Source: Glycomyces salinus
GTDB taxonomy: Bacteria; Actinomycetota; Actinomycetes; Mycobacteriales; Micromonosporaceae
Length of the DNA stretch: 64,000 bases
Assembly: GCF_016428645.1 (NCBI RefSeq)
Contig: NZ_JAELXW010000011.1
Location: forward strand, 1 to 64,000
Reading direction: 5' to 3'
Every line of letters begins with the position of its first letter. Within the stretch, counting starts at the first letter, position 1. Both the position numbers and the translations under genes were made by a program. Under the pieces are notes generated by a model. That model saw only the letters and a list, made by a program, of their open reading frames with translations, was not told the DNA's origin and searched no databases. Of this stretch, positions 6,435 through 31,418 are shown one piece after another.

Positions 6435-6475
6435 CCGGCCCCGGCTTGACACCTTCTCGACGACCGGGAATCATT

Positions 6476-6504
6476 GTTTCTGAAACCGGTTGTCGAAAAT
6501 TTTC
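6476..6504. promoter_or_regulatory. Palindrome-rich operator region before the second LacI gene
   Basis: Three overlapping palindromes lie in 29 bp: GTTTCTGAAAC (6476-6486), AACCGGTT (6484-6491) and GAAAATTTTC (6495-6504), ending 16 bp before the GTG start of the LacI gene. Autoregulation by that protein is the natural inference. The AACCGGTT core differs from the AAGCGCTT core of the first LacI gene, so the two regulators probably recognise different sites. Confidence 0.5.
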
Positions 6505-6520
6505 AAGCAAGGTGGATTCG

Positions 6521-7842: not shown

Positions 7843-7899
7843 GGCTTCCTCCCGACGGTCGGGGGCGGCGGTGCCACCGCCCCCGATCTGTTCATCGCC

Positions 7900-13350: not shown

Positions 13351-13674
13351 CGGGGCCCTGGCCGGCGGATCTCCGCTGTCGAGACCACTCGAAACCGCAG
13401 TGGTATGTGATATGTTACTGTCGACGCGGCGGCACGGAGACGGCGATCCGTGCGACGCCCAGTGGCATATCACATGTCACATAGAAGACCGATGCAAATG
13501 CGAACGGGCACCGGACCGGACGGCACGCGAGCGGCGCCTCGCGTTCCCCGGATCGGCCGACCGGTCGCGAGGGCACCGTGGCCCGCAGGTTCGCAGAACC
13601 ACCGAAGCCAGCAGCTCCGGCCCCCGGGCAACCGACGGGACCGACCGGCGCGAAGAAGCGATTGGAATTCCCTC
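13351..13674 (+). promoter_or_regulatory. Regulatory region of the peptide-import operon with TGTGAYAT repeats
   Basis: 324 bp without a gene. TGTGATATGTTACTG at 13406-13420 differs at only two of 15 positions from the element at 25009-25023 before the hydroxyproline genes. A second cluster in the opposite orientation, GCATATCACATGTCACAT at 13465-13482, contains two more inverted TGTGAYAT units. Together they look like operator sites for one dimeric regulator, most simply the GntR protein at 24283. The distance from the sites to the first gene leaves a leader of about 190-250 nt. Confidence 0.6.
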
Positions 13675-15360
13675 ATGATCAAGAAACTGACGCGCGCCTC
13701 GGCGGGCCTGGCGGCAGCGGCACTGCTGCTGTCGGCCTGTTCGGGCGGCAGCGGCGGCTCCGAGGACGGCGGCGGAGACGGCCCCGTCTCCGGCGGAACC
13801 GTCCACATGCTCCAGAACGCCGACTTCTCCTACCTCGACCCGGCCCGCGGCTGGGACGGCGGCGTGAACGCGTTCTACCGGCTGATCTACCGCGGCCTGA
13901 CCATGCAGGCGGCCGGCGACGCCGAGGACCCCAACGCGATCGTCCCCGACCTGGCCGAAAGCCTCGGCACCGCCTCGGAGGACGGTCTCACCTGGACCTA
14001 CACCCTCAAGGACGACCTGAAGTTCGACAACGGCGACCCCATCACCTCCGCCGAGATGGCCTTCGGCATCTCCCGCGCCTGGGACCCCGAGATCGGCATC
14101 GGCTCGCCGTACCTGAAGAAGACCATCGACGCGCCCGAGGACTACCAGGGCCCCTACATCTCCGGCGAGCACCCCGGCATCGAGACCCCGGACGAGAACA
14201 CCATCGTCTTCCACCTCAAGGAGCCTTTCCCCGAGTTCGACAACGTGCTCGCGCAGCCGAACGCGGTGCCGTTCCCGGTCGACTCCGGAGCCGGGGACGA
14301 GTTCATCAACGACATCATCGCCTCCGGGCCCTACACCCTCGAGACCTACACGCCCGGCAGCCTCATCAAGCTGGAGCGCAACGAGCACTGGGACCCGGAC
14401 ACCGACGACGTCCGCAAGGCCTACCCCGACGCCTGGGAGTTCGAGATCGGCCTCGAAGGCGCCACGATCGACGAGCGGCTCCTGGCCGGCCAGGGCGGCG
14501 ACGTCAACGCCATCTCCGGGAGAGTCCAGCCGGCCACCCTGGCGCGGCTCCAGTCCCCTGAAGTGGCCGACCGGGTCCTGACCGCGGACGCCTACTGCAC
14601 GACCTACATGGGCATGAACACCACCAAGGCCCCGTTCGACCAGGTCGAGGTCCGCCAGGCGATCAACTACGCGATCGACCGCGAGTCGCTGGTGACCGCC
14701 TCGGGCGGCACCCAGCTGGCCGACCCCGCCACCACGATCATCCCCCCGTCGGTCACCGGCCACCGCGACTTCGACCTCTACCCGAGCGATGACAATGCCG
14801 GCGACCCCGACCAGGCGGTCGAACTGCTCACCGAGGCGGGACTCGAGGACGGCTTCACCTTCACCCTCGACATCCGCTCGCAGCCGGCCATGCAGGCCCA
14901 GGCCGAGGCCATCCAGCAGGCGCTGGCCGAGATCGACGTCGAGGTCGAGCTGAACGTCATCGACACCTCCACCTACTACGAGACGATCGGCACGCCCTCG
15001 CAGCAGTCCGACGCCGCCATCACCGGCTGGTGCCCCGACTGGGCCTCCAGCGCCAGCACCATGGTCCCGCCGCTGGTCGACGGGGACGCCATCACCGACA
15101 AGGGCAACACCAACCTGGCCCAGATCGACGACCCCGAGATCAACGACCGCATCGACCAGATCATGGCGATGACCGACCTCGAGGCCGCCAACCAGGAGTG
15201 GGGCGCCTTCGACGAGGAGGTCATGGCCCTGGCGCCGATGGCCCCGATCCTGTGGGAGAAGGGCATCTTCCTCCCCGGCGAGAACATCGCCGGCTACATC
15301 CCCAACACCAGCATGACCGATCTGACGATCATCGGGCTGAAGGACCCGTCCCTGGGCTGA
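13675..15360 (+). CDS. Oligopeptide ABC transporter substrate-binding lipoprotein
   Basis: 561 residues of the extracytoplasmic solute-binding protein family 5 (DppA/OppA). The lipoprotein signal ends LLLSACSGGSGG, so it should be anchored outside the membrane after cleavage before the cysteine at residue 22. A glycine/serine linker is followed by GGTVHMLQNADFSYLDPA, the usual domain start, and the family-typical VRQAINYAIDRESLV near residue 330. I use ATG 13675, directly before the lipoprotein signal. It delivers peptides to the downstream DppBC/DppDF-type complex. Given the neighbours (Pro/Hyp peptidases, GH127, Hyp catabolism) the ligand is probably a Pro/Hyp-rich, perhaps arabinosylated, peptide; that is inference. 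Confidence 0.93.
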   Translation: MIKKLTRASAGLAAAALLLSACSGGSGGSEDGGGDGPVSGGTVHMLQNADFSYLDPARGWDGGVNAFYRLIYRGLTMQAAGDAEDPNAIVPDLAESLGTASEDGLTWTYTLKDDLKFDNGDPITSAEMAFGISRAWDPEIGIGSPYLKKTIDAPEDYQGPYISGEHPGIETPDENTIVFHLKEPFPEFDNVLAQPNAVPFPVDSGAGDEFINDIIASGPYTLETYTPGSLIKLERNEHWDPDTDDVRKAYPDAWEFEIGLEGATIDERLLAGQGGDVNAISGRVQPATLARLQSPEVADRVLTADAYCTTYMGMNTTKAPFDQVEVRQAINYAIDRESLVTASGGTQLADPATTIIPPSVTGHRDFDLYPSDDNAGDPDQAVELLTEAGLEDGFTFTLDIRSQPAMQAQAEAIQQALAEIDVEVELNVIDTSTYYETIGTPSQQSDAAITGWCPDWASSASTMVPPLVDGDAITDKGNTNLAQIDDPEINDRIDQIMAMTDLEAANQEWGAFDEEVMALAPMAPILWEKGIFLPGENIAGYIPNTSMTDLTIIGLKDPSLG

Positions 15361-15365
15361 TATCC

Positions 15366-16340
15366 ATGACCTTCACTCCGACAGATCTCGAAGTCGAAGG
15401 TGCGGCGGGCGGCGAGACGGCGGGCGAATCCCTGCCGGCCTCGCCGCCGGCCTCCGGGCGGCGCCTGGTCCGCACCTTCCTCCGCGACCGCGCGGCCGTC
15501 GCCTGCTGCGTCTACATCCTGCTGGTGATCGTCGTCGCCCTGGCCGCGCCCCTGCTGGTCAAGATCAGCGGCTGGGGACCGTACGAGTTCGACCAGAGCG
15601 CCGTCGACCCCGATCTGGGCGGCATCCCTCTGGGGACCGCCGGCGGGATCAGCGCCGAGCACTGGTTCGGCGTCGAGCCCGGCAACGGGCGCGACATCTT
15701 CGCGCGCATCGTCTACGGCGCGCGCGTGTCGATGACGATCGCGCTCCTGGCGACCGTGCTCACCAGCGTCCTCGGCGTCGTCTTCGGCCTCATCGCCGGA
15801 TACTTCGGCGGCCGGGTGGACATGATCGTCTCCCGCGTCATGGAGTTCCTCATGGCCTTCCCGGCGCTGATCTTCATGATCGCCGTCCTCTCGGCGCTTC
15901 CGGCCGAGAACCGGCAGCTCCTGCTGGTCGTCGTCATCTCCTTCTTCGGCTGGCCGTACCTGGCCCGCATCGTCCGCGGCCAGACCATGTCGATCAAGGA
16001 GCGCGAGTTCGTCGAGTCCGCGCGTGCCTCGGGCGCCTCCAGCGCGCAGATCATCTTCAAGGAGATCCTGCCGAACCTCACCTCAACCATCATCGTGATG
16101 ACCACCCTGGCCGTCCCCGGCTACGTCGGCACCGAGGCCGGGCTGTCGTTCCTCGGCGTCGGCGTCGTCCCCCCGACCCCCTCGTGGGGCCAGATGATCG
16201 CCGGCTCCGTGCCCTGGTACGCCGTCGACCCGGCCTACTTCCTGTTCCCGGGGGCCTGCCTGTTCCTGCTCGTCCTGTCGTTCACCGTCCTCGGTGACCG
16301 CGTCAAGAAGATCGCCGAGTCCGGGGAGGGCCGGGTATGA
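15366..16340 (+). CDS. Oligopeptide ABC transporter permease (DppC-like)
   Basis: 324 residues with an N-terminal cytoplasmic stretch, a first membrane helix (AVACCVYILLVIVVALAAPLL), a large external loop and five further helices. The cytoplasmic coupling motif is visible in ESARASGASSAQIIFKEILPN. Permeases of this type form a heterodimer with the DppB-like subunit. It starts five bases after the binding-protein stop and its own stop overlaps the next start (ATGA). It begins an unbroken chain of six ATGA-coupled junctions that runs through to the GH127 gene, which implies co-translation of importer, peptidases and glycosidase. Confidence 0.93.
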   Translation: MTFTPTDLEVEGAAGGETAGESLPASPPASGRRLVRTFLRDRAAVACCVYILLVIVVALAAPLLVKISGWGPYEFDQSAVDPDLGGIPLGTAGGISAEHWFGVEPGNGRDIFARIVYGARVSMTIALLATVLTSVLGVVFGLIAGYFGGRVDMIVSRVMEFLMAFPALIFMIAVLSALPAENRQLLLVVVISFFGWPYLARIVRGQTMSIKEREFVESARASGASSAQIIFKEILPNLTSTIIVMTTLAVPGYVGTEAGLSFLGVGVVPPTPSWGQMIAGSVPWYAVDPAYFLFPGACLFLLVLSFTVLGDRVKKIAESGEGRV

Positions 16341-17331
16341 GCCGCTTCCTGATCAACCGCGTGCTCGGCATGGCCGTCGTGCTGTTTCTGGTGTGCCTGT
16401 TCACCTTCGTGGTCTTCTTCGTCCTCTCGCCCGACCCGGCGGTGCAGATCTGCGGCAAGAACTGCACCCCCGAGGCGATCGACCAGATCCGCGCGAACCT
16501 CGGCCTCGACCAGCCGTTCTGGACCCAGTTCTGGACGTTCCTCAGCGGCCTGTTCGCCGGGCGCACCTACGGGACCGGCGCGAACGCCATCGAGTGCGCC
16601 GCCCCGTGCCTGGGGTACTCCTTCCAGACCAGCCAGCCGGTCACCGACATGATCGTGCAGCGGCTCCCGGTCTCGGCGACCGTCGCGATCGGAGCAGCGG
16701 TGCTGTGGCTGCTCGCCGGGGTCTCGGCCGGACTCGTCAGCGCCGTCCGCGAAGGGCGCTTCGCCGACCGCTTCGTCACCGGCCTCACCCTCACCGGCAT
16801 GTCCATCCCCAACTACGTGCTGGCGCTGTCGCTCCAGTTCCTGCTCGTGGTCACACTCGGCTGGCTGCCGTTCCCGCAGGCGGTCCCGTTCGCCGACGAC
16901 CCGGTGCGCTGGTTCCTGAACTTCCTGATGCCCTGGATCGTGCTCGCCATCGGCGCCGCGGCCGTCTACACCAGACTCACGCGGGCCAACGTCATCGACA
17001 CCCTCCAGGAGAACTACGTCCGCACCGCGCGGGCCAAGGGACTCAGACCCGACCTGGTCTGGCGGCGGCACGCGCTGCGCCCGGCCCTGACCCCGATCGT
17101 CACCATCTTCGGCATGGACTTCGCCAACCTGCTCGGCGGCGCCCTCATCACCGAGACCGTCTTCGGGCTCAACGGCATCGGCAAGCTCGCCGCCGACTCG
17201 ATCACCAAGAACGACCAGCCGGTCATCATGGGAGTCACGCTCCTGGCCGCGTTCCTCGTGGTCGTCGGCAACATGGTGGTCGACCTGACGTACACCGCCA
17301 TCGACCCGCGCGTGCGAGTGGGGAGCGCCAA

Positions 17332-17335
<4 letters not shown>
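16337..17335 (+). CDS. Oligopeptide ABC transporter permease (DppB-like)
   Basis: 332 residues with the DppB-type first helix (RVLGMAVVLFLVCLFTFVVFF), the conserved ANLGLDQPFW segment, and the coupling loop NYVRTARAKGLRPDLVWRRHALRPALTPI. The external loop after helix 1 contains two cysteine pairs (ICGKNC and ECAAPC), which may form disulfides. It overlaps the genes on both sides by four bases. With the DppC-like subunit it forms the membrane channel. Confidence 0.94.
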
Positions 17336-18194
<859 letters not shown>

Positions 18195-18198
<4 letters not shown>

Positions 18199-19070
18199 CC
18201 GACACTCCCGAACCCCTGCTGCGGGCCCGCGACCTCGTCAAGGAGTTCGCCATTCCCGGCGGCGGGCCGCTGAGCCGGGCCAGGCGGTTCCGCGCCGTCG
18301 ACGACGTCTCCCTCGAAGTCCGCACCGGAGAGACCCTCGCCCTGGTCGGCGAGTCGGGCTCCGGCAAGTCCACCACCGCGCGCCTGATCGCGCGGCTCAT
18401 CGACATCACCAGCGGCTCGATCGAGTTCGCCGGCAGGGAGGTCCACGCTCTCACCGGCCGGGCCCTGCACGCCTACCGCAGCGAGGTGCAGGTCGTCTTC
18501 CAGGACCCGTACTCCTCGCTCAACCCCAGGCACTCGGTCGAGCGGATCGTGACCGCGCCCCTGGTCTACCAGCGGCGCCGCGTACCCGGCGGCGCGAGGG
18601 CCTTCACCAAGGAGCTCATGGAGCGCGTCGGCCTCGACCCCGACCACTCGGCCCGGTTCCCCTCCCAGTTCTCCGGAGGGCAGGCCCAGCGCATCGGCAT
18701 CGCCCGCGCGCTCGCCGTCTCACCGAAGCTGATCATCGCCGACGAGGCGGTCTCAGCCCTCGACGTCTCGGTGCAGGCGCAGGTGATCAACCTGCTCCGG
18801 CGGCTCCAGGACGAGGAGGGGTTCAGCTACCTCTTCATCGCCCACGACCTCGCGGTGGTCCGCCAGATCGCGACCAGGGTCGCGGTCATGAACGGCGGCC
18901 GCATCGTCGAGACCGGCGACCGGGACCAGGTGTTCGAGGAACCCCGCGACGACTACACGAAGAAGCTGCTGTCCGCGATCCCGCGCATCAGGCCCGAGTG
19001 GGACGCTGCACGACGGAGGAACGAGCGGGCCCGCCGGGACCGAGAGCGACAGGAGGCGGTCGAATCATGA
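18195..19070 (+). CDS. Oligopeptide ABC transporter ATPase (DppF-like)
   Basis: 291 residues. Walker [14 protein letters not shown], signature [15 protein letters not shown] and Walker [19 protein letters not shown] are intact; the usual DEPxSALD reads DEAVSALD here, a mild variation. The tail is strongly charged ([19 protein letters not shown]). ATGA overlaps on both sides place it between the DppD-like ATPase and a proline iminopeptidase, so imported peptides meet peptidases made from the same message. Confidence 0.93.
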
Positions 19071-20362
19071 GAGAAGCGCACGTGGAGTACTCGATGCCGG
19101 GCATGCGGGTGCGCGAGCGGACCGTCCGCGTCCCCCTTGACTGGTGGGACCGCGACCGAGGCGAGATCGAGGTCTTCGTCCGCGAGATCGTCGACCCCGA
19201 CAAGCGCGGCGACGACCTGCCGCTGCTGACCTACCTCCAAGGCGGCCCCGGCGGGGCGAACCCGCGCCCCACCGAGGCCTCCGGCTGGATGGAGGAGGCA
19301 CTCAAGGACTACCGCGTCGTCCTCGTCGACCAGCGCGGCACCGGACGCAGCACCCCCGTCGACGCCCGCACGGTCGCCGAGATCGGCGACGCGCAGGCCG
19401 GCGCCGAGTACCTCGCCAGGTTCCGCGCCGACTCGATCGTCCGCGACCTCGAGCACGTGAGGACGGTGCTCTACGAGGGACGGAAATGGGCCACCCTCGC
19501 GCAGAGCTACGGCGGCTGGCTCACCCTCGCCTACCTCTCGCACGCACCGGAGGCGCTGGCGGCCTGCTACGTGTGCGGCGGCATCCCCGGGAACCCCATG
19601 AGCGCCGAGGAGGTCTACCGGCGCACCTTCGACCGCGTCGCGGACAAGACCGCCGAGTACTACCGGCGGTACCCCCAGGACGTCGAGAAGGTCGCCGCGA
19701 TCGCCGACCGGCTCGCGGCGGAGACCGTCCTGCTGCCCGACGGCGACCGGCTCACCGTGCGGCGCTTCCAGTCGCTCGGCCTCGACCTGGGCATGAAACC
19801 GGGCCTGGAGCGGATGCACTGGCTGGTCGAGGACGCGTTCATCACCGCGGACCGCCTCTCCGAGGGCTTCCTCGCCGCCGTCCTCGCCCGCACCTCCTCG
19901 GCGGCCAACCCGCTGTTCTGGACGCTCCAGGAGTCGATCTACGGCGACGGCGCCAACGGCCCCACCGACTGGGCGGCCCAACGCGAACGCGACCGCCGCC
20001 CCGAGTTCGGCGAGGAGGTGCGCCCGCTCCAGTTCACCGGCGAGATGGCCTTCCCCTGGATGTTCGACGAGGTCAGGCTCCTGCGCGGGTTCGGCCCGGC
20101 CGTGCGCGACCTGGCCGAGCGCCGCGAGTGGAGCCCGGTGTTCGACGCCGACCGACTCGAATCGAACGAGGTACCGGTGGCCGCGGCCGTCTACTTCGAG
20201 GACATGTTCGTCGACTCGGGGCTGCAACTGGACACCCTCAAGGGCCTGGGCAACTCCCAGTCCTGGGTCACCAACGAGTTCGAACACGACGGCATCGGGT
20301 CGGGACGGGTCCTCACCCGCCTGCGAGAGATGGTCCGCGACCGAGGAGGCGAGCGCCGATGA
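19067..20362 (+). CDS. Proline iminopeptidase-like alpha/beta hydrolase (S33)
   Basis: 431 residues of the S33 prolyl aminopeptidase type, which removes N-terminal proline (and in some members hydroxyproline) from peptides. Visible: LQGGPGG oxyanion loop near residue 60, DQRGTGRSTP, nucleophile S147 in LAQSYGGW, a long helical cap, and the terminal histidine H407 in EFEHDGIGSG. There is no signal peptide, so it acts in the cytoplasm. Start at ATG 19067 overlapping the DppF-like stop. In this operon its likely task is to peel Pro or Hyp from imported peptides. Confidence 0.88.
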   Translation: MREAHVEYSMPGMRVRERTVRVPLDWWDRDRGEIEVFVREIVDPDKRGDDLPLLTYLQGGPGGANPRPTEASGWMEEALKDYRVVLVDQRGTGRSTPVDARTVAEIGDAQAGAEYLARFRADSIVRDLEHVRTVLYEGRKWATLAQSYGGWLTLAYLSHAPEALAACYVCGGIPGNPMSAEEVYRRTFDRVADKTAEYYRRYPQDVEKVAAIADRLAAETVLLPDGDRLTVRRFQSLGLDLGMKPGLERMHWLVEDAFITADRLSEGFLAAVLARTSSAANPLFWTLQESIYGDGANGPTDWAAQRERDRRPEFGEEVRPLQFTGEMAFPWMFDEVRLLRGFGPAVRDLAERREWSPVFDADRLESNEVPVAAAVYFEDMFVDSGLQLDTLKGLGNSQSWVTNEFEHDGIGSGRVLTRLREMVRDRGGERR

Positions 20363-24188: not shown

Positions 24189-24282
24189 ACACCGGAACGG
24201 AAGGCCGCCCAGACCGTGCGGTGTACCCTGCAAAGCGACGGCATCGGTCTCGACCGTGCGTTACAGAAAGGCAAGCGGGAGA

Positions 24283-24963
24283 GTGACGTTGCTATCCATC
24301 CAACGGCTGGAACCGGGCGAGAGCCTGCGGGCGAGGGTCGAGCGCACCCTGTCGCTGGCCATCATCTCCGGTGAGCTCGCGCCGGGGACGCTGCTGACCG
24401 TGCCGACCCTGGCCGAGAGGTTCGACGTGTCGGCCACGCCGGTCCGCGAGGCCATGCTCGACCTGGAGAAGCGCGGCTTCGTCGAGCCGGTGCGCAACAA
24501 GGGCTTCCGCGTGACGGCCGTCAGCGACGACCTGCTCCACGACATTGTGGAGATCCGGCTGCTGCTCGAACCGCCCGCCATGGCTCGCCTGGCCGAGTCG
24601 TTCCCGGCCGAGCGGCTGGCGGAGTTCCGCACCCAGGCCGACGAGATCGTCACCGGCGCCCACTCGGGCGACCTGACCGCCTACCTCCTGGCCGACCAGC
24701 ACTTCCATCTCGAACTGACCTCCCTGCTCGGCAACCCCGTGCTGGTGGAGACGATCGCCGAGCTGCGCGCGCGCACCCGGCTGGTCGGGCTCGTCTCGAT
24801 GCTGGAGACGAGCATGCTCCACGTCTCGGCCGAAGAGCACCACCGGCTGCTCGACAACCTCGCCGCCGGCGACGCGGACGCGGCGGCCGACCTCATGCGG
24901 CAGCACATCAGGCACGCCGTCGGCTGGTGGGCCGGCAAGACCGAGGATGACGCGGGGGAGTAG
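24283..24963 (+). CDS. GntR-family (FadR subfamily) regulator
   Basis: 226 residues from GTG 24283; a TTG six bases on has better spacing to GGGAG and may be the true start. N-terminal winged helix (LAERFDVSATPVREAMLDLEKRGFVEPV) and a C-terminal FCD ligand domain with the usual D and H residues (ADQHFHLELTSLLGN, EEHHRLLDNLAAGDADAAADLMRQHIRHAV). FCD regulators usually bind small carboxylates and are released by them. It lies between the peptide-import operon and the Hyp catabolic genes, and near-identical elements precede both blocks, so it probably controls both. Hyp or a pathway intermediate is the expected effector; inference. Confidence 0.92.
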   Translation: MTLLSIQRLEPGESLRARVERTLSLAIISGELAPGTLLTVPTLAERFDVSATPVREAMLDLEKRGFVEPVRNKGFRVTAVSDDLLHDIVEIRLLLEPPAMARLAESFPAERLAEFRTQADEIVTGAHSGDLTAYLLADQHFHLELTSLLGNPVLVETIAELRARTRLVGLVSMLETSMLHVSAEEHHRLLDNLAAGDADAAADLMRQHIRHAVGWWAGKTEDDAGE

Positions 24964-24991
24964 CCCCCGCGGTCGAGTGAACGAATCCGAG

Positions 24992-25023
24992 TGTCGCACA
25001 TATAAATGTGTGACATATTACTG
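24992..25023. promoter_or_regulatory. Operator before the hydroxyproline catabolic operon
   Basis: TGTCGCACAT and ATGTGTGACA form an imperfect 10-bp inverted repeat (one mismatch) with a 4-bp ATAA spacer at 24992-25015. Overlapping it is TGTGACATATTACTG (25009-25023), 13 of 15 identical to 13406-13420. It ends 15 bp before the first start codon, overlapping the expected promoter, so repression by the adjacent GntR protein is plausible. Confidence 0.65.
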
Positions 25024-25038
25024 GAGCGGGAGGTGGCC

Positions 25039-26229
25039 ATGAGAACCGACGTCGTCATCGTCGGTGCCGGCATCATCGGCGCCGCGTGCGCGCGCGAGGC
25101 CGCGCGCGCCGGACTGAGCGTCACCGTCGTCGACCGAGGCGCGGCGGCCAGCGCCACCAGCGCCCGCGGCGAAGGGAACCTCCTGGTATCCGACAAGGCC
25201 CCGGGCCCCGAGCTCGACCTCGCCCTGCTGGCCGCCGACCACTGGCCCGGTCTGGCCGCCGAGCTCGCCGACGAACTCGGCGGAGCGTTCCCCGACATCG
25301 AATACCAGCGCAAGGGCGGCGTCGTCGTCGCCACGACACCCGAAGGCGCCGAACCCCTCCGCGCCTTCGCCCGCCGCCAGACCGAACTCGGCGTCGAGGC
25401 CGCCGACCTGTCCGTCCCCGAGGCCCTCGAACTCGAACCCCACCTCGACCCCGCCGTCGCCGCGGCCGTCCACTACCCGCAGGACGCGCAGGTCCAACCC
25501 GTCATCGCCACCGAGGCCCTGCTCGCCTCCGCCAGGCGTGCGGGCGCGAAGATACTGCCCCACAGCGAAGTCGTCGGCCCGGTCCGTGACAGGAACGGCC
25601 GCCTCGGCGGCGTCCGCACCGCCGCCGAGGCGATCTCGGCCGGAGCGGTCCTCGTCGCCGCCGGGCCCTGGTCCGGCGAGGTCGCCCGGACGCTCGGCGC
25701 GGATCTGCCGGTCCGCCCCCGCCGCGGCATGGTCCTGGTGACCTCCCGCATGCGGCAGCGGGTCTTCCACAAGGTGTACGACGCCGACTACTTCGGCGCG
25801 ACCCAGTCCTCGGACGAGGGCCTACAGACCTCCAGCGTCATCGAGTCCACTCCCGGCGGAACCGTCCTCATCGGCTCGAGCCGCCAGCAGATCGGCTTCG
25901 ACGACCGGCTGCGCGTCGAGGTCCTGGCGCGCATCGCCCGCAAGGCGCTGCGCCTGTTCCCGTTCCTGGAGACCACCTCCGCGATCCGGGCCTACGGAGG
26001 CTTCCGCCCCTACGTGCCCGACCACCTCCCGGTCATCGGCGAGGACCACCGCGACCCCGGACTCTGGTACGCCACCGGACACGAAGGCGCCGGGATCGGC
26101 CTCGCCGGCGTCACCGGAGCCCTGATCGGCGCCCAGCTCACCGGTGCCGAACCCGCCCTCGACCCGAGACCGTTCCAGCTCTCCAGGCCGAGCCTGGCCG
26201 CCCACCTGAGCCCCGGAGGTCCGACGTGA
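25039..26229 (+). CDS. FAD-dependent oxidoreductase, putative cis-4-hydroxy-D-proline dehydrogenase subunit
   Basis: 396 residues of the DAO/HcnC-type FAD amine oxidoreductases. The dinucleotide fold VVIVGAGIIGAACAREAARAG opens the protein and the closing GLWYATGHEGAGIGLAGVTG is typical. As in the heterotrimeric D-hydroxyproline dehydrogenases of Pseudomonas and rhizobia, this would be the catalytic amine-oxidising subunit, making delta1-pyrroline-4-hydroxy-2-carboxylate. I use ATG 25039, six bases after GGGAGG. Its stop overlaps the GTG of the next gene. The next two genes encode the iron-sulfur and second flavin subunits, which supports the three-subunit reading. Confidence 0.87.
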   Translation: MRTDVVIVGAGIIGAACAREAARAGLSVTVVDRGAAASATSARGEGNLLVSDKAPGPELDLALLAADHWPGLAAELADELGGAFPDIEYQRKGGVVVATTPEGAEPLRAFARRQTELGVEAADLSVPEALELEPHLDPAVAAAVHYPQDAQVQPVIATEALLASARRAGAKILPHSEVVGPVRDRNGRLGGVRTAAEAISAGAVLVAAGPWSGEVARTLGADLPVRPRRGMVLVTSRMRQRVFHKVYDADYFGATQSSDEGLQTSSVIESTPGGTVLIGSSRQQIGFDDRLRVEVLARIARKALRLFPFLETTSAIRAYGGFRPYVPDHLPVIGEDHRDPGLWYATGHEGAGIGLAGVTGALIGAQLTGAEPALDPRPFQLSRPSLAAHLSPGGPT

Positions 26230-26540
26230 GCAGCATCGTCCCCTTCGAATCCGACCCGATCCGGCCCGCCGAACCGCGATGCCTGACCATCAGCGTCGAC
26301 GGCGAGCGGATCGAAGGGCTGCGAGGGCAGTCCATCGCCGGAATCCTCCTCGCCCAGGGCCGGACCGCCTGGCGCACCACCGTCGCCGGCCGCGAGCGCG
26401 GCGTCTTCTGCGGCATCGGCGTCTGCTTCGACTGCGTCGGCACCGTCAACGGCGAGAGCGACGTCCGCCTGTGCCTGCGGCGGGCCCGCGACGGCGACAC
26501 CGTGGAGACCCAGGACGACTCCGAGGAGGACACCCGATGA
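26226..26540 (+). CDS. [2Fe-2S] small subunit of the D-hydroxyproline dehydrogenase
   Basis: 104 residues, GTG start overlapping the previous stop. A plant-ferredoxin-like fold with four cysteines, C62, C67, C70 and C83 (pattern C-x4-C-x2-C-x12-C), matching the HcnA-like gamma subunits that pass electrons between the two flavoproteins of proline/hydroxyproline dehydrogenase complexes. ATGA couples it to the larger subunit. Confidence 0.88.
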   Translation: MSSIVPFESDPIRPAEPRCLTISVDGERIEGLRGQSIAGILLAQGRTAWRTTVAGRERGVFCGIGVCFDCVGTVNGESDVRLCLRRARDGDTVETQDDSEEDTR

Positions 26541-27949
26541 AGCACGTCCTCGTCATCGGCGCCGGACCGGCCGGACTGACCGCCGCCGTCGCGGCGGCCG
26601 ACGCCGGAGCGCGCGTCACCGTCCTCGACTCCGGCACCGGCCCCGGCGGCCAGTACTGGCGGCACCTGCCCCCCGAGCGCCCGAGCCGCCGCGAAGCCCG
26701 GCTCCACCATGGCTGGTCCGAATTCGAGCGGCTGCGCGAGCGCACCGAACGCGACGGGTCGATCGACGTGGTCACCGAGGCCCAGGCCTGGGCGATCGAG
26801 ACCACCGGCGGCGCGACCGTCCACGCCTTGATCGGGCCGAGCGACGCCGCCGGACGCGAGGCGCTCGCACTGGAAGCCGACTCACTCGTGTTCGCCACCG
26901 GCGCCCACGACCGCACCCTGCCCTTCCCCGGCTGGAACCTCCCCGGCGTGTTCTCCGCCGGAGCCGCCCAGGCCCTGGCCAAAGGCGAGCGGATCGCCGT
27001 CGGGCGCCGCGCCGTCGTCGCCGGAGCCGGGCCGTTCCTGCTGCCGGTCGCCCAGTCGCTCACCGCTACCGGGTCGACCGTCCTCGGCGTATACGAGGCC
27101 GCGCGCACCCCGGCCCTCGCGAAAGGCTGGCTGCCGCGCCCGTGGCGACTGCTGTCCTCGGCGCGCAAGGGAGGCGAACTCGCCGGCTACCTGGCCCACC
27201 ACCTCCGCCACCGCGTGCCCTACCGCCTCGGCCGGGCCGTGGTCGAAGCGCGCGGCGACGGCCGCGTCGAAGAGGCCGTCATCGCGCGCCTGGACGCCGA
27301 CTGGTCCCCGATACCCGGCACCGAACTCACCGTCGCCGCCGACGCCGTATGCGTCAGCCACGGCTTCACCCCGCGACTCGAACTGCCCATCGCCGCCGGA
27401 TGCGAGATCGGCCCCGACCGCTTCGTCACCGTCGACGACGACCAGCGCACCAGCGTCGACGGCGTCTGGGCGGCCGGAGAGATCACCGGCATCGGCGGCG
27501 TCGACGCCGCGCTCGCCGAGGGCCGCGTCGCCGGACACCTCGCGGCCGGAGGCGACCGGTCCGCGATCGGACCCGCCCGGCGCCGCCGCCGCGCGAGTGC
27601 CGATTTCGCCCGCCGCATCGAGGCCGCCCACGGCGTCCGGCCCGGCTGGACCGCCTGGATGCGCGAGGACACCGTCGTCTGCCGCTGCGAAGAGGTCGCC
27701 TACGGCGCGCTGCTCGGCACCGCCGCGGCGACCGAGCAGGGCTCGCTGCGCTCGGTCAAGCTCACGACCCGGGCGGGCCTGGGCATCTGCCAGGCCCGCA
27801 TGTGCGGCCGCACGGTCGAGGAGCTCACCGGAGCCGACCCCTCTCGCGCCGCCGACACCTCCGACCGGCGGCCCCTGGCCGCCCCAGTTCGACTCGGCGA
27901 CCTCGCCGGGCTCTCCAGCAAGGACGACCCCCAGAAAGGTGAACACTGA
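26537..27949 (+). CDS. NAD(P)/FAD-type oxidoreductase subunit of the D-hydroxyproline dehydrogenase
   Basis: 470 residues of the HcnB/alpha-subunit type. N-terminal FAD fold HVLVIGAGPAGLTAAVAAADAG, GPGGQYWRHLP, second nucleotide fold around residue 160 (VVAGAGPFLLPVAQSL), and a C-terminal BFD-like iron-sulfur segment with CRCEEV and GICQARMCGRTVEEL. In related heterotrimers it accepts electrons from the amine-oxidising subunit through the [2Fe-2S] protein. It begins at ATG overlapping the small-subunit stop; its stop shares one base with the next ATG. Confidence 0.87.
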   Translation: MKHVLVIGAGPAGLTAAVAAADAGARVTVLDSGTGPGGQYWRHLPPERPSRREARLHHGWSEFERLRERTERDGSIDVVTEAQAWAIETTGGATVHALIGPSDAAGREALALEADSLVFATGAHDRTLPFPGWNLPGVFSAGAAQALAKGERIAVGRRAVVAGAGPFLLPVAQSLTATGSTVLGVYEAARTPALAKGWLPRPWRLLSSARKGGELAGYLAHHLRHRVPYRLGRAVVEARGDGRVEEAVIARLDADWSPIPGTELTVAADAVCVSHGFTPRLELPIAAGCEIGPDRFVTVDDDQRTSVDGVWAAGEITGIGGVDAALAEGRVAGHLAAGGDRSAIGPARRRRRASADFARRIEAAHGVRPGWTAWMREDTVVCRCEEVAYGALLGTAAATEQGSLRSVKLTTRAGLGICQARMCGRTVEELTGADPSRAADTSDRRPLAAPVRLGDLAGLSSKDDPQKGEH

Positions 27950-28887
27950 TGAGCGAGAAGAACTTCGACCTAGGCGGCGTCATCGTCGCGACGACGCTGG
28001 CGTTCAAGGAGGACCCGAAGGCCCCCGGCGGACTGGCCGTCGACTACGACAAGTTCGCCGAGCACTGCGACTTCCTCATCGAGAACGGATGCCGCGGCGT
28101 CGGACCCAACGGCTCGCTCGGCGAGTACTCGTCCCTGACCGACGCCGAGCGCCGCAAGGTCGTCCAGGTGGCCGTCGAGACCGTCGGCGACCGCGGCCTG
28201 GTCGTCGCCGGAGTCCACGGCGTCGGCTGGCACCAGTCCGTCAAGTGGGCCGAGTACGCCGAAGAGGACGGCGCCGACGGCCTGCTGCTGCTGCCGCCCA
28301 CGATCTACCGCTCCAACCGCGCCGAAGTGATCGAGCACTACACCAAGGTCGACGAGGTCGGCCTGCCGATCATGATGTACAACAACCCGATCGACACCAA
28401 GGTCGACATGGAGCCCGACCTCATCGCCGAGCTGTTCCAGCTCGAGAACGTCGTGGCCGTCAAGGAGTTCTCCACCGACGTCCGCCGCGTCCTGGAGATC
28501 AAGGAGCTGTGCGACATCGACGTCATCGCCGGCGCCGACGACCTCCTGTTCGAGTCCCTGGTCGTCGGGGCCGTCGGCTGGTTCGCCGGATACCCGAACG
28601 CGTTCCCGCGCGAGGCGGTGGAAATCTACGATCTCGTCCAGGCCGGCGAGATCGCCCGCGCCCGCGAGCTCTACACCGGCCTGGTCCCGGTGTTCCGCTG
28701 GGACACCAAGACCGAGTTCGTGCAGGCCATCAAGCTGTCGATGGACGTCGCCGGCAACAGCTACGGCGGCCCGACCCGCCCGCCGCGCGGGCCGCTCACG
28801 GCCGCCCAGCGCGAGCAGGTCGTCCGCGACACCCGCCGCGCCCTGGACCACTCCGCCCGGACCTTCGGAGCCGGCGCGGCCCGCTAG
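27949..28887 (+). CDS. DHDPS-family protein, putative pyrroline-4-hydroxy-2-carboxylate deaminase
   Basis: 312 residues, a TIM barrel of the dihydrodipicolinate synthase/N-acetylneuraminate lyase family. Schiff-base lysine K172 sits in VVAVKEFSTDVRR and the catalytic tyrosine Y144 in MMYNNPID; the substrate loop reads GPNGSLGEYSSL. In hydroxyproline pathways a member of this family deaminates delta1-pyrroline-4-hydroxy-2-carboxylate to 2-oxoglutarate semialdehyde. Assignment rests on the neighbours: dehydrogenase genes before it, epimerase and aldehyde dehydrogenase after. The family also includes unrelated aldolases, so genomic context decides here. Confidence 0.87.
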   Translation: MSEKNFDLGGVIVATTLAFKEDPKAPGGLAVDYDKFAEHCDFLIENGCRGVGPNGSLGEYSSLTDAERRKVVQVAVETVGDRGLVVAGVHGVGWHQSVKWAEYAEEDGADGLLLLPPTIYRSNRAEVIEHYTKVDEVGLPIMMYNNPIDTKVDMEPDLIAELFQLENVVAVKEFSTDVRRVLEIKELCDIDVIAGADDLLFESLVVGAVGWFAGYPNAFPREAVEIYDLVQAGEIARARELYTGLVPVFRWDTKTEFVQAIKLSMDVAGNSYGGPTRPPRGPLTAAQREQVVRDTRRALDHSARTFGAGAAR

Positions 28888-28911
28888 CGGCTACCCCGCG
28901 AGAGGACGGAT

Positions 28912-29913
28912 ATGAGAACGACACGGCTGATCAGCGCGGTCGACTCGCACACCGAGGGCATGCCGACCCGTGTGGTCACCGGCGGCGTCGGCCCGATTCC
29001 CGGCGCGACGATGAACGACAAGCGCCTCCACTTCATCGACCACATGGACGACATCCGCCGGTTCCTGGTCAACGAGCCGCGCGGCCACGCGGCGATGAGC
29101 GGCGCGATCCTGCAACCGCCGACCCGGCCCGACTGCGACTGGGGCGTGGTCTTCATCGAAGTGTCGGGCTGCCTGCCGATGTGCGGGCACGGCACGATCG
29201 GCGTCGCCACGGTCCTGGTCGAGACCGGCATGGTCCCGGTCGTCGAACCGGTAACCGAGATCCGGCTCGACACCCCGGCCGGCCCCGTCACCGCCCGCGT
29301 CGCCGTCTCCGGAGGCCACGCCGACTCGGTCACCATCGAGAACGTCCCGAGCTACGCCGAGACGCTCGACGCGACCGTGGAGGTTTCCGGGCTCGGCACC
29401 GTCCCGTACTCGATGGCCTTCGGCGGCAACTTCTACGCCATGGTCGACCTCGACGACGTCGGGCTGCCGTTCGACCGCTCCCGCCAGCGGGAGATCCTGG
29501 AGGCGGGCCTGGCGATCATGGACGCGGTCAACCGGACCGCGCCGCCGGTGCACCCGCACATAGCCGGGCTCGACCACTGCCACCACGTCGAGTTCATCGC
29601 GCCCGGCTCGACCGCGGCGCACTCGCGGCACGCCATGGCCATCCACCCCGGCTGGTTCGACCGGTCCCCGTGCGGGACCGGCACCTCGGCCCGGATGGCC
29701 GAACTGTGGGCCCGCGGCGAACTGGCCCTCGGGTCCGACTTCGTCAACGAGTCTTTCATCGGCTCCCGCTTCACCGGACGCCTCGTCGCCGAGACCACCG
29801 TCGGCGACCGCCCGGCGGTGGTCCCCGCGATCACCGGCCGCGCCTGGGTCACCGGCACCGCCCAGTACATGCTCGACCCCGCCGACCCGTTCCCCACCGG
29901 CTTCCAGTTCTAG
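28912..29913 (+). CDS. 4-hydroxyproline 2-epimerase (proline racemase family)
   Basis: 333 residues. Two catalytic cysteines are present: C91 in LPMCGHGTIG and C254 in DRSPCGTGTSARMA. Cys at both positions is the signature of proline racemase and of the 4-hydroxyproline 2-epimerases, and excludes the Thr-containing trans-3-hydroxyproline dehydratases. With D-Hyp dehydrogenase genes beside it, conversion of trans-4-hydroxy-L-proline to cis-4-hydroxy-D-proline is the most likely reaction. Cytoplasmic, cofactor-free. GAGAGGA precedes the start. The gap to the previous gene is 24 bp, so it belongs to the same operon. Confidence 0.93.
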   Translation: MRTTRLISAVDSHTEGMPTRVVTGGVGPIPGATMNDKRLHFIDHMDDIRRFLVNEPRGHAAMSGAILQPPTRPDCDWGVVFIEVSGCLPMCGHGTIGVATVLVETGMVPVVEPVTEIRLDTPAGPVTARVAVSGGHADSVTIENVPSYAETLDATVEVSGLGTVPYSMAFGGNFYAMVDLDDVGLPFDRSRQREILEAGLAIMDAVNRTAPPVHPHIAGLDHCHHVEFIAPGSTAAHSRHAMAIHPGWFDRSPCGTGTSARMAELWARGELALGSDFVNESFIGSRFTGRLVAETTVGDRPAVVPAITGRAWVTGTAQYMLDPADPFPTGFQF

Positions 29914-29921
29914 GAGTATCG

Positions 29922-31418
29922 ATGACCGACCAGACGCCCCCCGACCGCATCGACCAGACCGCCCGCGCCGCCGACGCGGCCGCCCGCGCGCTCGCGGCGG
30001 TCCCCCCGGCGACCCGCGCCGCCGCGCTCGTGGCGGCGGCCGACGCGGTCACCGCGCACGCCGACGAGCTGGTGCCGCTGGCGATGGACGAGACGGGCCT
30101 GACCGAGCCGCGGCTGCGCGCCGAGCTGAAGCGCACGGCCGTCCAGCTGCGGCTGTTCGCCGACACCATCGTCGACGGCGCCTACCTCGACGCCCGGATC
30201 GATCGGGCCGACCCCGAGTTCGCGCTCGGTCCCCGGCCCGACGTGCGCCGCGTCAACGAACCGGTCGGGCCCGTGCTGAACTTCGCCGCCGGCAACTTCC
30301 CGTTCGCGTTCTCGGTCGCCGGAGGGGACACCGCCTCGGCCCTGGCCGCGGGCAACCCGGTGATCGTCAAGGCCCACCCCGGGCATCCGCGACTGTCGGA
30401 GCGCACCGCCGCGATCGTGGCCGCCGCGCTCGAAGAGGCCGGACTCCCGGAGACGGCGCTGCAATTGATCGAGGGCCGGGAGGCCGGGGTGGCGATGCTG
30501 AAGCACCCGCTGGTCAAGGCGTCGACCTTCACCGGGTCGATCCCCGGGGGCCAGTTCCTCGCGGGCGAGGCCGCCTCCAGGCCGGTCCCGATTCCGTTCT
30601 ACGGCGAGCTCGGCAGCGTGAACCCGGTCTTCGCCACCGCGGGCGCCGTCGCCGAGCGCGCCGAGTCGTTCGTGTCCGGGATGGTCGCGAGCGTGGCCGG
30701 TTCCGCCGGGCAGCTGTGCACCAAGCCCGGATTCGTGTTCCTCCCGGCCGACCACGGGCTCGAGGAGGCGATCGCGGAGGCCGCGGGCGGCGTGGCCGAG
30801 CACCGGATGCTCGATGCGCGCATCGCCGGCGGATACCGGGAGCGGCGCGCGACGATCCTCGACAGCGCGGGCGTCCGTGTCGTCGCCGAGGGCTCGATCC
30901 GGATCGACGCGGACGGCCACGGCTGGGCGACCCCCACGATCGCGGCCGTCGGCCTGGACGGCCTGCGCGAGGCGTTCGACGCGCTGCGGGACGAATGCTT
31001 CGGCCCGCTGGCGATCCTCGTCGAGGTCCCGGCCGAAACCGACTACGCGGACCTGCTGGGGGAGTTCTTCGAGGGCGACCTGACCGTCACCGTGCACCGG
31101 ACCGAGGGCGAGAACGTCGAGCGCCTCGTCCGGGCCGCGGCCGGTCACGCCGGGCGGGTCCTGTTCGACGGATGGCCGACCGGTGTGGCCGTCACCCCGG
31201 CGATGCAGCACGGCGGGCCGTGGCCCGCGACGACGTCGGGCGGCACGAGCGTCGGCACGGCGGCCATCGCCAGGTTCGTGCGGGCGGTGGCCTACCAGAA
31301 CGCGCCGGCCGACCTGCTCCCGCCGCCGGTGCGCGACGACAACCCGTGGGGCGTCCCGCAGCGGATCGCCGCGCCCGGCGAGTCGTCCCGGTGGGGCGAC
31401 CGCTCGGCGCGGCGTTGA
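29922..31418 (+). CDS. Aldehyde dehydrogenase, putative 2-oxoglutarate semialdehyde dehydrogenase
   Basis: 498 residues of the aldehyde dehydrogenase superfamily, closest in style to the ketoglutarate-semialdehyde dehydrogenases of sugar-acid and hydroxyproline pathways. NLNFAAGNFPFAFSVAGGD-type N-terminal strand, glutamate in PFYGELGSVNP, catalytic C266 in GQLCTKPGF, and FGPLAILVEV are visible. It finishes the pathway by oxidising 2-oxoglutarate semialdehyde to 2-oxoglutarate for the TCA cycle. ATG 29922 is preceded by GGAG that overlaps the epimerase stop region. It is the last gene of the operon; the next gene is on the other strand. Confidence 0.9.
   Translation: MTDQTPPDRIDQTARAADAAARALAAVPPATRAAALVAAADAVTAHADELVPLAMDETGLTEPRLRAELKRTAVQLRLFADTIVDGAYLDARIDRADPEFALGPRPDVRRVNEPVGPVLNFAAGNFPFAFSVAGGDTASALAAGNPVIVKAHPGHPRLSERTAAIVAAALEEAGLPETALQLIEGREAGVAMLKHPLVKASTFTGSIPGGQFLAGEAASRPVPIPFYGELGSVNPVFATAGAVAERAESFVSGMVASVAGSAGQLCTKPGFVFLPADHGLEEAIAEAAGGVAEHRMLDARIAGGYRERRATILDSAGVRVVAEGSIRIDADGHGWATPTIAAVGLDGLREAFDALRDECFGPLAILVEVPAETDYADLLGEFFEGDLTVTVHRTEGENVERLVRAAAGHAGRVLFDGWPTGVAVTPAMQHGGPWPATTSGGTSVGTAAIARFVRAVAYQNAPADLLPPPVRDDNPWGVPQRIAAPGESSRWGDRSARR

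What the first reader, a model, noticed from the sequence alone, without database searches (positions are those of the whole stretch)
13406..31418. A complete import-to-TCA locus for arabinosylated hydroxyproline-rich plant glycoproteins
In one 18-kb block lie a peptide ABC importer, two proline-specific peptidases, a GH127 beta-L-arabinofuranosidase, a GntR regulator and every step from trans-4-hydroxy-L-proline to 2-oxoglutarate. Each function is known separately (HypBA1-type GH127; LhpA/HypRE-type epimerase, D-Hyp dehydrogenase, DHDPS-like deaminase, KGSA dehydrogenase). Their combination fits one substrate: extensin-like Hyp-O-arabinoside peptides of plant cell walls. I know of no described actinomycete locus that takes such glycopeptides from uptake to central metabolism; that this is new is inference.
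Basis: partly seen in the sequence, partly recalled or inferred. Interest (0 to 1): 0.88.

Follow-up and report, generated by a model that had tools for sequence, protein, structure and literature searches.

The report
Gene cluster eating sugar-coated plant peptides
A soil actinobacterium carries one co-regulated gene set that most likely imports plant cell-wall peptides decorated with arabinose, strips the sugar off inside the cell and burns the freed hydroxyproline, and relatives of this set occur in several other actinobacterial genera.

Summary
Confirmed. Window 13401-31418 (a Glycomyces genome) holds 15 co-directional genes: an Opp-type peptide importer, two proline-specific peptidases, a beta-L-arabinofuranosidase, a GntR regulator and a route from trans-4-hydroxyproline to 2-oxoglutarate. 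Correction: the glycosidase is GH146-like, not HypBA1-type GH127. Three tests go beyond adjacency. (1) The glycosidase-peptidase(-importer) module recurs in other actinobacterial genera. Of its 35-row glycosidase clade, 34 genomes could be tested and all hold the hydroxyproline epimerase, 24 within about 20 kb, in at least four gene orders; 14 genomes with the next glycosidase clades but no module hold none. (2) A palindromic operator precedes importer and hydroxyproline operon in Glycomyces, with similar sites in other genera, but none in eight Microbacterium module loci. (3) Module glycosidases lack export signals (0 of 35); 15 of 18 proteins of the next clades show twin-arginine-like leaders. 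Best reading: peptides bearing Hyp-O-arabinose are imported, deglycosylated and hydrolysed in the cytosol, and the Hyp is burned. The hydroxyproline part alone is known in Streptomyces; my searches listed no paper on the combined system. No biochemistry fixes the substrate.

The parts
13401..13421 (+). Palindromic operator 1 upstream of the importer (TGGTATGTGATATGTTACTGT)
   Evidence: PWM score 24.9, not a training site; one of 4 exact RTGTGAYATRYYAC sites in the 5.37-Mb genome
13459..13479 (-). Operator 2 upstream of the importer (TGACATGTGATATGCCACTGG)
   Evidence: PWM score 20.5, not a training site; exact pattern site
13675..15360 (+). Lipoprotein-type solute-binding protein of an oligopeptide ABC importer
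   Evidence: SBP_bac_5 7.4e-77; start and lipobox-like LSAC read by eye; nearest solved: oligopeptide-binding protein 2wok, 1.3e-86
15366..16340 (+). OppC-type permease
   Evidence: BPD_transp_1, OppC_N
16337..17335 (+). OppB-type permease
   Evidence: BPD_transp_1_N, BPD_transp_1
17332..18198 (+). OppD-type ATPase
   Evidence: ABC_tran, oligo_HPY
18195..19070 (+). OppF-type ATPase
   Evidence: ABC_tran, oligo_HPY
19067..20362 (+). S33 prolyl aminopeptidase-like hydrolase (N-terminal Pro/Hyp release, inferred)
   Evidence: Abhydrolase_1; weak prolyl aminopeptidase models, below cut-off; nearest solved: 8jgm and the Arabidopsis AT3g61540 protein 8jgn, 2.1e-99
20359..21783 (+). M24 aminopeptidase P-like (Xaa-Pro/Xaa-Hyp, inferred)
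   Evidence: AMP_N plus Peptidase_M24; PRK10879 Xaa-Pro aminopeptidase 6.9e-58, below cut-off
21780..24188 (+). Cytosolic GH146-like beta-L-arabinofuranosidase (cysteine glycosidase) with C-terminal beta domains
   Evidence: PF07944/PF20736; GH146 nearest in sequence and fold; catalytic and Zn residues conserved; no export signal
24283..24963 (+). GntR/FCD regulator (HypR-like, inferred)
   Evidence: GntR, FCD; S. coelicolor HypR is a FadR-subfamily GntR (PMC6608401)
25004..25024 (+). Operator 3, just upstream of the Hyp operon (AAATGTGTGACATATTACTGG)
   Evidence: one of the PWM training sites; exact pattern site
25039..26229 (+). D-hydroxyproline dehydrogenase, DAO subunit (beta)
   Evidence: DAO 3e-68; same three-subunit make-up as SCO6289-91 (PMC6608401)
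26226..26540 (+). D-hydroxyproline dehydrogenase, [2Fe-2S] subunit (gamma)
   Evidence: Fer2_4 9e-20
26537..27949 (+). D-hydroxyproline dehydrogenase, Pyr_redox_2/BFD subunit (alpha)
   Evidence: Pyr_redox_2 2.1e-32, Fer2_BFD
27949..28887 (+). Delta1-pyrroline-4-hydroxy-2-carboxylate deaminase (DHDPS family)
   Evidence: DHDPS 4.8e-49; best NCBIfam model dapA below cut-off; role from context
28912..29913 (+). 4-hydroxyproline 2-epimerase (proline racemase superfamily, Cys/Cys)
   Evidence: Pro_racemase 5.8e-129; best NCBIfam model 4-hydroxyproline epimerase 346 bits, cut-off 376; HypE-like Ser and His at discriminating sites 1 and 4
29922..31418 (+). 2-oxoglutarate semialdehyde dehydrogenase (aldehyde dehydrogenase)
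   Evidence: Aldedh 6.9e-39; nearest solved: NADP+ aldehyde dehydrogenase 3v4c, 1e-96; specificity inferred from context

Best explanation
The block is a co-regulated nutritional locus for peptides bearing Hyp-O-L-arabinofuranose from plant cell-wall and related glycoproteins. An OppABCDF-type ABC importer takes up short peptides that still carry arabinose. In the cytosol a GH146 cysteine glycosidase removes the Hyp-linked beta-L-arabinofuranose. An aminopeptidase P-like M24 enzyme and an S33 prolyl aminopeptidase then open the Xaa-Hyp and Hyp-Xaa bonds. Free trans-4-L-Hyp is epimerised, oxidised by the three-subunit D-Hyp dehydrogenase, deaminated and oxidised to 2-oxoglutarate. The GntR protein is the likely repressor acting on the palindromic operators before the importer and the Hyp operon. 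SHOWN by computation: gene identities, catalytic-residue conservation, lack of an export signal, operator conservation, conserved linkage and co-occurrence. INFERRED: intact-glycopeptide uptake, exact substrate, enzyme specificities, repressor-operator binding, extensin as the source.
For: Gene content. Co-occurrence: of 30 genomes searched through loci, 16 with the module (glycosidase beside S33 and/or M24; importer off-contig in some) all hold the epimerase, and 14 without it hold none (Fisher 6.9e-9, not corrected for phylogeny). Of 101 relatives, 18 of 18 with module-type S33 (>=63% identity) hold the epimerase against 29 of 83 others. Within the genus, 15 of 15 with the glycosidase orthologue against 4 of 7 others. 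Linkage: epimerase on the same contig within about 20 kb of the glycosidase in 24 of the 35 clade rows, in at least four gene orders. Shared operator: in Glycomyces before the importer in 15 of 15 module genomes and before the DAO gene in 10 of 10 full loci. In 35 loci mostly of other actinobacterial genera the same matrix gives 53 raw hits against 6 in reversed sequence, or 27 against 6 after removing double strands, overlapping loci and identical sites, the 6 all lying in two loci of Paenibacillus and Bifidobacterium; many of the 27 stand before importer, DAO, DHDPS or GntR genes. Localisation: 0 of 35 module glycosidases with an export signal, 15 of 18 of the next clades with one. Enzyme: GH146 fold and active site, model pLDDT 90.9. 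Two enzymes listed under GH146 in PMC10850190 act on Araf-beta-Hyp: XeHypBA1, which prefers Ara-Hyp (PMC6085000, abstract and passages), and Bll4HypBA1 (named so in PMC10850190).
Against: No biochemical, growth or transcript data. GH146 specificity varies: Bll3HypBA1 is beta1,3-specific with 0.053% or less relative activity on Ara-Hyp (PMC10850190), and BT0349 sits in an RG-I locus (same paper). Oligopeptide-binding proteins are promiscuous (general knowledge). In five Glycomyces genomes the module lies apart from the Hyp operon, and G006 keeps S33 and the Hyp operon but not the importer or glycosidase. The operator was not found at the score used in the eight Microbacterium module loci scanned, nor in the Pseudoclavibacter module locus L077. 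The pattern is not exclusive to the locus: one further exact site (C194) and two one-mismatch sites (C149, C159) exist in the genome, and some other Glycomyces hold up to 22 exact sites. Epimerase site 5 is Ile, typical of neither HypE nor ProR. Co-occurrence is not corrected for phylogeny; an independent-pairs test of peptidase and Hyp neighbours on the glycosidase tree had too few pairs to decide.
Confidence: 0.76

Rival explanations
1. The system takes up unglycosylated Hyp peptides, such as collagen fragments, and the GH146 acts on separately imported arabino-oligosaccharides or is an accessory.
For: The importer is of a general oligopeptide type. The S. coelicolor Hyp regulon includes a putative collagenase (PMC6608401). 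Hyp operons without the module are common: 29 of the 83 relatives without module-type S33 hold the epimerase.
Against: The glycosidase is kept next to the peptidases across genera, lacks an export signal in the module clade but not in the next clades, and no sugar importer is among the 15 genes. Collagen Hyp is not known to carry L-arabinose (general knowledge).
Confidence: 0.12
2. The substrate is free Hyp-arabinoside (Ara1-Hyp or Ara2-Hyp amino-acid glycosides) rather than longer peptides, the peptidases serving other peptides.
For: XeHypBA1 prefers Ara-Hyp over longer chains (PMC6085000, passages).
Against: Proline-specific exopeptidases and, where the contig reaches, usually a peptide-type importer are kept in the module, which a free amino-acid glycoside would not need.
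Confidence: 0.1
3. Chance or neighbour-only association: two unrelated operons, arabinan or AGP-oligosaccharide use and Hyp use, lie side by side.
For: In five Glycomyces genomes the two modules are apart.
Against: At least four gene orders in several genera, co-occurrence and a shared operator even where unlinked, for example before DHDPS-HypE in L041 and L044 (matrix training sites) and before the importer of the same genomes in L020 and L017 (not training sites).
Confidence: 0.02

Closest known systems
Streptomyces coelicolor HypR regulon (SCO6289-6294), PMC6608401 (abstract, sections 20 and 25 read)
   Same: GntR/FadR-type regulator, three-subunit D-Hyp dehydrogenase, Pyr4H2C deaminase and epimerase; published operator shares the core ATGTCAC.
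   Different: In its table of regulon genes there is no peptide importer, proline-specific peptidase or glycosidase (a multidrug-type ABC gene and a collagenase are listed); KGSA dehydrogenase elsewhere; linked by its authors to collagen.
Bifidobacterium longum HypAA/HypBA2/HypBA1 beta-arabino-oligosaccharide system (PMC7263609: listing and start of abstract; PMC5928203: passages)
   Same: Targets Hyp-O-arabinosides of plant HRGPs; a cytosolic clan GH-P cysteine glycosidase coupled to an ABC importer.
   Different: Imports released arabino-oligosaccharide, with HypBA1 (GH127) and a LacI-family regulator; Hyp catabolism is not mentioned in what I saw.
Xanthomonas euvesicatoria XeHypAA/XeHypBA2/XeHypBA1 (PMC6085000, abstract and passages)
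   Same: XeHypBA1 (GH127 in its own paper, listed under GH146 in PMC10850190) cleaves Araf-beta-Hyp.
   Different: Extracellular enzymes; the word transporter does not occur in the text; no Hyp catabolism in the passages read.
GH146 BT0349 (5opj) and Bll3HypBA1 (8k7y)
   Same: Nearest solved relatives in sequence and fold; same Cys3-Glu zinc site and acid/base.
   Different: About 22-23% identity in the fold alignments; Bll3 is beta1,3-specific and cell-surface anchored, BT0349 belongs to an RG-I locus (PMC10850190).
Latescibacteria SAGs, in-silico HRGP degradation (PMC4454575, passages)
   Same: Predicts extensin use through GH127, peptidases and oligopeptide importers.
   Different: Genome inventory, not a locus; no Hyp catabolic locus in the passages read.

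Membership tests
GH146 (clan GH-P cysteine glycosidase) | Zn site of Glu plus three Cys, with the nucleophile Cys | tested here: met
   E339, C341, C409, C410 align with E723, C725, C804, C805 of Bll3HypBA1 and are invariant in 38 sequences
GH146 (clan GH-P cysteine glycosidase) | Acid/base Glu and other subsite residues | tested here: met
   E321 (=E694), E225 (=E578), W63, Y170, H272, N274, Y391 aligned and invariant; T631 is Gln275 here
GH146 (clan GH-P cysteine glycosidase) | Closer to GH146 than to GH127 | tested here: met
   Sequence ranks; fold ranks 1-6 are all GH146 chains; no tree with XeHypBA1, Bll4HypBA1 or other CAZy references was built
   HypBA1 not among phmmer hits at E <= 1e-5; in the fold search its chains follow all GH146 chains
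4-hydroxyproline 2-epimerase | Two catalytic Cys (epimerase/racemase, not T3LHyp dehydratase) | tested here: met
   MCGHGT and SPCGTG in the protein; the Cys/Thr rule for the dehydratase is largely recalled
4-hydroxyproline 2-epimerase | HypE-type residues at sites 1, 4 and 5 (Ser/Val; His; Cys/Tyr) | tested here: inconclusive
   Read by hand from the alignment with the sites of PMC4364671 (passages): site 1 Ser, site 4 His, site 5 Ile (neither type)
HypR-type Hyp regulon | GntR/FCD regulator with conserved operators before Hyp genes | tested here: met
   that this GntR protein binds them is inferred
HypR-type Hyp regulon | Published S. coelicolor motif CTNTGC(A/C)ATGTCAC | tested here: inconclusive
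   With up to 3 mismatches it is no commoner than chance in the window (15 against 14.9 expected); the core ATGTCAC is shared but is not enriched either (5 against 3.7)
HypR-type Hyp regulon | Induction by Hyp and repressor-DNA binding | not testable with these tools
   needs reporter assay, EMSA or RNA-seq

The most novel reading that the evidence does not exclude
Actinobacteria have evolved a dedicated uptake and cytosolic processing system for intact Hyp-O-arabinosylated peptides, in which a formerly Tat-exported GH146 moved into the cytosol and came under Hyp control. Its natural substrates include plant arabinosylated signalling peptides of the CLE type as well as extensin fragments, so that these soil and plant-associated bacteria remove plant peptide hormones from their surroundings.
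Probability: 0.15. Interest if true: 0.85.

Novelty: new variant of a known kind. Interest (0 to 1): 0.62.

Why it matters
Hyp-rich glycoproteins are an abundant and protease-resistant part of plant walls. How bacteria use the protein and the sugar part together is poorly described. This gene set gives a testable answer: one regulon couples glycopeptide import, cytosolic de-arabinosylation, proline-specific peptidases and Hyp catabolism, with relatives in several actinobacterial genera. It also offers a clean evolutionary contrast (cytosolic against exported GH146 within the same genera), a predicted operator, and candidate enzymes for cleaving Hyp-O-arabinose from peptides.

Tried and rejected
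Chance clustering: rejected by recurrence in several genera and gene orders. HypBA1-type GH127: rejected. trans-3-Hyp dehydratase instead of epimerase: rejected, both catalytic Cys present. Published S. coelicolor HypR motif as such: not enriched in the window; a matrix from Glycomyces sites was needed. Fourth exact operator-pattern hit at C194:9358: it lies in a stretch where my gene caller finds no gene and lacks the second half-site by eye, so I treat it as chance; the one-mismatch sites on C149 and C159 lie near genes with no visible link to Hyp (read by eye) and were not followed. First structure model (6 sequences, pLDDT 59) was too poor and was replaced by one on 38 sequences. Independent-pairs test on the glycosidase tree: too few pairs. 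Paper searches listed none that describes the combined system; open-access PMC papers only, judged from titles and abstract starts except for the papers named.

In one search, 31 of the 80 loci were given (15 of the module clade, 16 of the next clades) and one (L102) was not held. In one search, 24 genomes were given: the 16 of the next clades and 8 of the module clade. In one search, 18 of 19 rows of the two next clades were used (L108 left out: 69 bases upstream). The tree is a quick search with SH-aLRT only. In the first count of operator hits sites were counted on both strands and some loci overlap; one search gives the count without these.


Full report
WHAT IS THERE. Gene calls by codon-position GC and Pfam/NCBIfam confirm 15 co-directional genes from 13675 to 31418, many with overlapping stops and starts. 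They are a lipoprotein-type binding protein, OppC, OppB, OppD, OppF, an S33 hydrolase, an M24 aminopeptidase P-like enzyme, a clan GH-P glycosidase, a GntR/FCD regulator, a DAO subunit, a [2Fe-2S] subunit, a Pyr_redox_2/BFD subunit, a DHDPS-family protein, a proline-racemase-family protein and an aldehyde dehydrogenase.

THE GLYCOSIDASE. The nearest solved proteins are the GH146 enzymes BT0349 (5opj, 202 bits) and Bll3HypBA1 (8k7y, 151 bits). The best GH127 scores 56 bits and HypBA1 was not found at E <= 1e-5. An AlphaFold2 model on 38 sequences has mean pLDDT 90.9. All six GH146 chains in the listing precede every GH127 chain in the fold search. The zinc residues E339, C341, C409 and C410, the acid/base E321 and E225 align with residues found essential in Bll3HypBA1 (PMC10850190, sections 17 and 23 read) and are invariant in 38 relatives. 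At the place of Ile522 of Bll3HypBA1, which its authors connect with linkage specificity, this protein has Trp166; BT0349 has Trp162 there according to the same paper (hand reading). Two enzymes listed under GH146 in that paper act on Araf-beta-Hyp: XeHypBA1, which prefers Ara-Hyp (PMC6085000, abstract and passages), and Bll4HypBA1 (named so).

THE HYDROXYPROLINE ROUTE. The epimerase has both catalytic Cys. By hand reading of the alignment with the sites of PMC4364671 (passages), site 1 is Ser and site 4 is His, both HypE-like; site 5 is Ile, found in neither class. The best NCBIfam model is 4-hydroxyproline epimerase, below its cut-off (346 of 376 bits). The three-subunit dehydrogenase, deaminase and epimerase match the make-up of the S. 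coelicolor operon SCO6289-6293; a strain without its epimerase gene no longer grew on L-Hyp as sole carbon source (PMC6608401, sections 20 and 25 read). S. lividans grows on t4Hyp (PMC4113996, passages). This half is therefore known in actinomycetes.

SYNTENY IN THE GENUS. Of 22 Glycomyces genomes (G000-G021), 10 including this one hold the full 15-gene order. Five (G002, G007, G010, G015, G017) hold the importer-peptidase-glycosidase-GntR part without the Hyp operon next to it. G006 keeps S33 plus the Hyp operon without importer or glycosidase orthologue. All 15 genomes with the glycosidase orthologue hold the epimerase somewhere, against 4 of the 7 others.

OTHER GENERA. A quick tree of 82 glycosidase rows puts 35 of them in one clade with SH-aLRT 99: Promicromonospora, Kineosporia, Actinoplanes, Kineococcus, G027, Microbacterium, Pseudoclavibacter, Leucobacter, Nesterenkonia, Brachybacterium and Glycomyces. 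All 35 have S33 and/or M24 within the fetched flanks; of the other 47 rows, 4 do. Gene orders differ: module then Hyp operon (Glycomyces); Hyp operon, ALDH, GntR, module (G027, Kineosporia, Kineococcus); divergent (Promicromonospora); module then DHDPS-HypE-GntR-DAO (Microbacterium, whose DHDPS and DAO are only 46-53% identical, so a different Hyp operon lineage); importer inverted (Brachybacterium). In ten of the other rows the epimerase is elsewhere in the genome or on another contig; one row (L102) could not be searched.

CO-OCCURRENCE. I searched the epimerase in 30 genomes behind loci, 14 of the clade and 16 of the two next clades. It was found in 16: all 14 of the clade plus two of the others, and those two proved to carry module genes beside the epimerase as well (L161 and L162). 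The other 14 have no epimerase at E <= 1e-30 and no module-type S33 (best 58% identity, against 65-74% in the ten module genomes given). So 16 of 16 against 0 of 14 (Fisher 6.9e-9; not corrected for phylogeny, and the genomes cluster by genus). Among 101 relatives, module-type S33 (>=63%) is in 18, all with the epimerase; of the other 83, 29 have it. The relation is one-sided: Hyp use occurs without the module, but in these sets the module was not seen without the epimerase. This is what a feeder system for the Hyp route should show. Some Bifidobacterium loci hold a distant GH146 with S33, and with M24 or Opp-like genes, but no Hyp genes within the flanks.

OPERATOR. A palindrome of the type TAATATGTGACATATTACTG stands before the DAO gene in 10 of 10 full loci; these sites are among the matrix training sites (18 matches, 12 distinct). 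It also stands before the binding protein in 15 of 15 module genomes: 13, which were not training sites, and 2 (G014, G015) from the genome-wide pattern hits because their loci were cut short. Ten shuffles of the window gave 1 hit in all at score 12. In this genome the exact pattern RTGTGAYATRYYAC occurs four times in 5.37 Mb, three of them in this locus; with one mismatch two more places appear (C149, C159); the pattern read backwards occurs 0 times. Where the modules are apart, the separate DHDPS-HypE operon carries it too (L041, L044; also L045; these were training sites). In 35 loci mostly of other genera (728,922 bases, some overlapping) the same matrix gives 53 raw hits against 6 in reversed sequence. 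Counted once each they are 27 against 6, and the 6 all lie in the Paenibacillus and Bifidobacterium loci L122 and L140. Sites stand before the binding protein in Promicromonospora, Kineosporia, Actinoplanes and Kineococcus, and before DAO, DHDPS or GntR in several genera, among them Pseudoclavibacter (L147), Leucobacter (L148) and the separate Hyp locus of one Microbacterium (L150). None reached the score in the eight Microbacterium module loci scanned nor in L077. The core ATGTCAC is that of S. coelicolor HypR, but neither it nor the full published motif is enriched in the window.

LOCALISATION. None of the 35 module-clade glycosidases shows an RR leader or a hydrophobic N-terminal stretch. 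In the window the glycosidase start overlaps the M24 stop. Of 18 proteins of the two next clades (Microbacterium, Cellulosimicrobium, Oerskovia, Promicromonospora and others), 15 show RR plus a hydrophobic stretch and 16 a hydrophobic stretch (a simple hydropathy rule, no signal-peptide program). The module enzyme is thus most likely cytosolic, which requires that the arabinosylated compound be imported first.

MECHANISM. Most likely: outer arabinoses and the polypeptide are trimmed outside by enzymes not in the locus. Short peptides with residual Hyp-arabinose enter by the Opp importer. GH146 removes arabinose. M24 and S33 exopeptidases release residues around Hyp. The epimerase, D-Hyp dehydrogenase, deaminase and semialdehyde dehydrogenase give 2-oxoglutarate. 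Arabinose isomerase for the freed sugar is elsewhere. Order of sugar and peptide cleavage, and the sugar chain length taken up, are open.

WHAT IS NOT SHOWN. No enzyme, transport or induction experiment. Extensin, other arabinosylated wall proteins and arabinosylated signalling peptides cannot be told apart by sequence. Paper searches listed nothing on the combined locus, but only open-access PMC papers were searched.

Noticed in passing
L041 (G002:C12), L044 (G007:C1), L066 (G014:C6) and positions: In some Glycomyces genomes, palindromes of the operator type (ATGTGACATGYCAC and similar) crowd within 75 kb of a second GntR gene: 14 of 18 genome sites in G002, 14 of 22 in G007, 8 of 13 in G014 (expected 0.5, 0.6 and 0.35; window chosen after seeing the data). 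Many are not at promoters, and in G014 the epimerase lies on another contig. Looks like a region-wide binding array centred on a regulator gene.
   Followed up: partly
L126, L131, L140: Bifidobacterium loci with a distant GH146 and S33 (51-55% identical to the window's), with M24 or Opp-like genes, but no Hyp catabolic genes within the flanks: perhaps arabinose harvest from the same glycopeptides.
   Followed up: partly
L122: Paenibacillus sp. JJ-223 has epimerase, DHDPS, DAO and Pyr_redox relatives near a GH146 relative without the peptidases: a possible independent link of GH146 and Hyp use in Bacillota.
   Followed up: no
window 19067-20362: The S33 peptidase is far closer to the Arabidopsis AT3g61540 protein (8jgn, 2.1e-99) than to the solved bacterial and archaeal proline iminopeptidases (best 8e-06).
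   Followed up: no
window 21780-24188 against L021, L023, L031; L029 oriented 9593-9734: Relatives of the glycosidase carry an insert of some 60-90 residues near residue 633 that the window, L017 and L019 lack. In G014 the region near residue 476 holds palindromes at 57-bp spacing.
   Followed up: no
window 11139-12740 (-): Next to the locus lies a Pel9A-like beta-helix protein with carbohydrate-binding domains, in line with a plant-wall diet.
   Followed up: no
window 31980-34727 (-); L054 11512-14094; L056 6064-8580; L065 14208-16727: Large proteins with an Hsp70-like N-terminal part (read by eye, no family search run) recur in Glycomyces genomes.
   Followed up: no
L054 (G000:C194) about 6000-11500: A stretch of about 5.5 kb where the GC-based gene caller finds no gene, holding the one exact operator-pattern hit outside the locus.
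   Followed up: no
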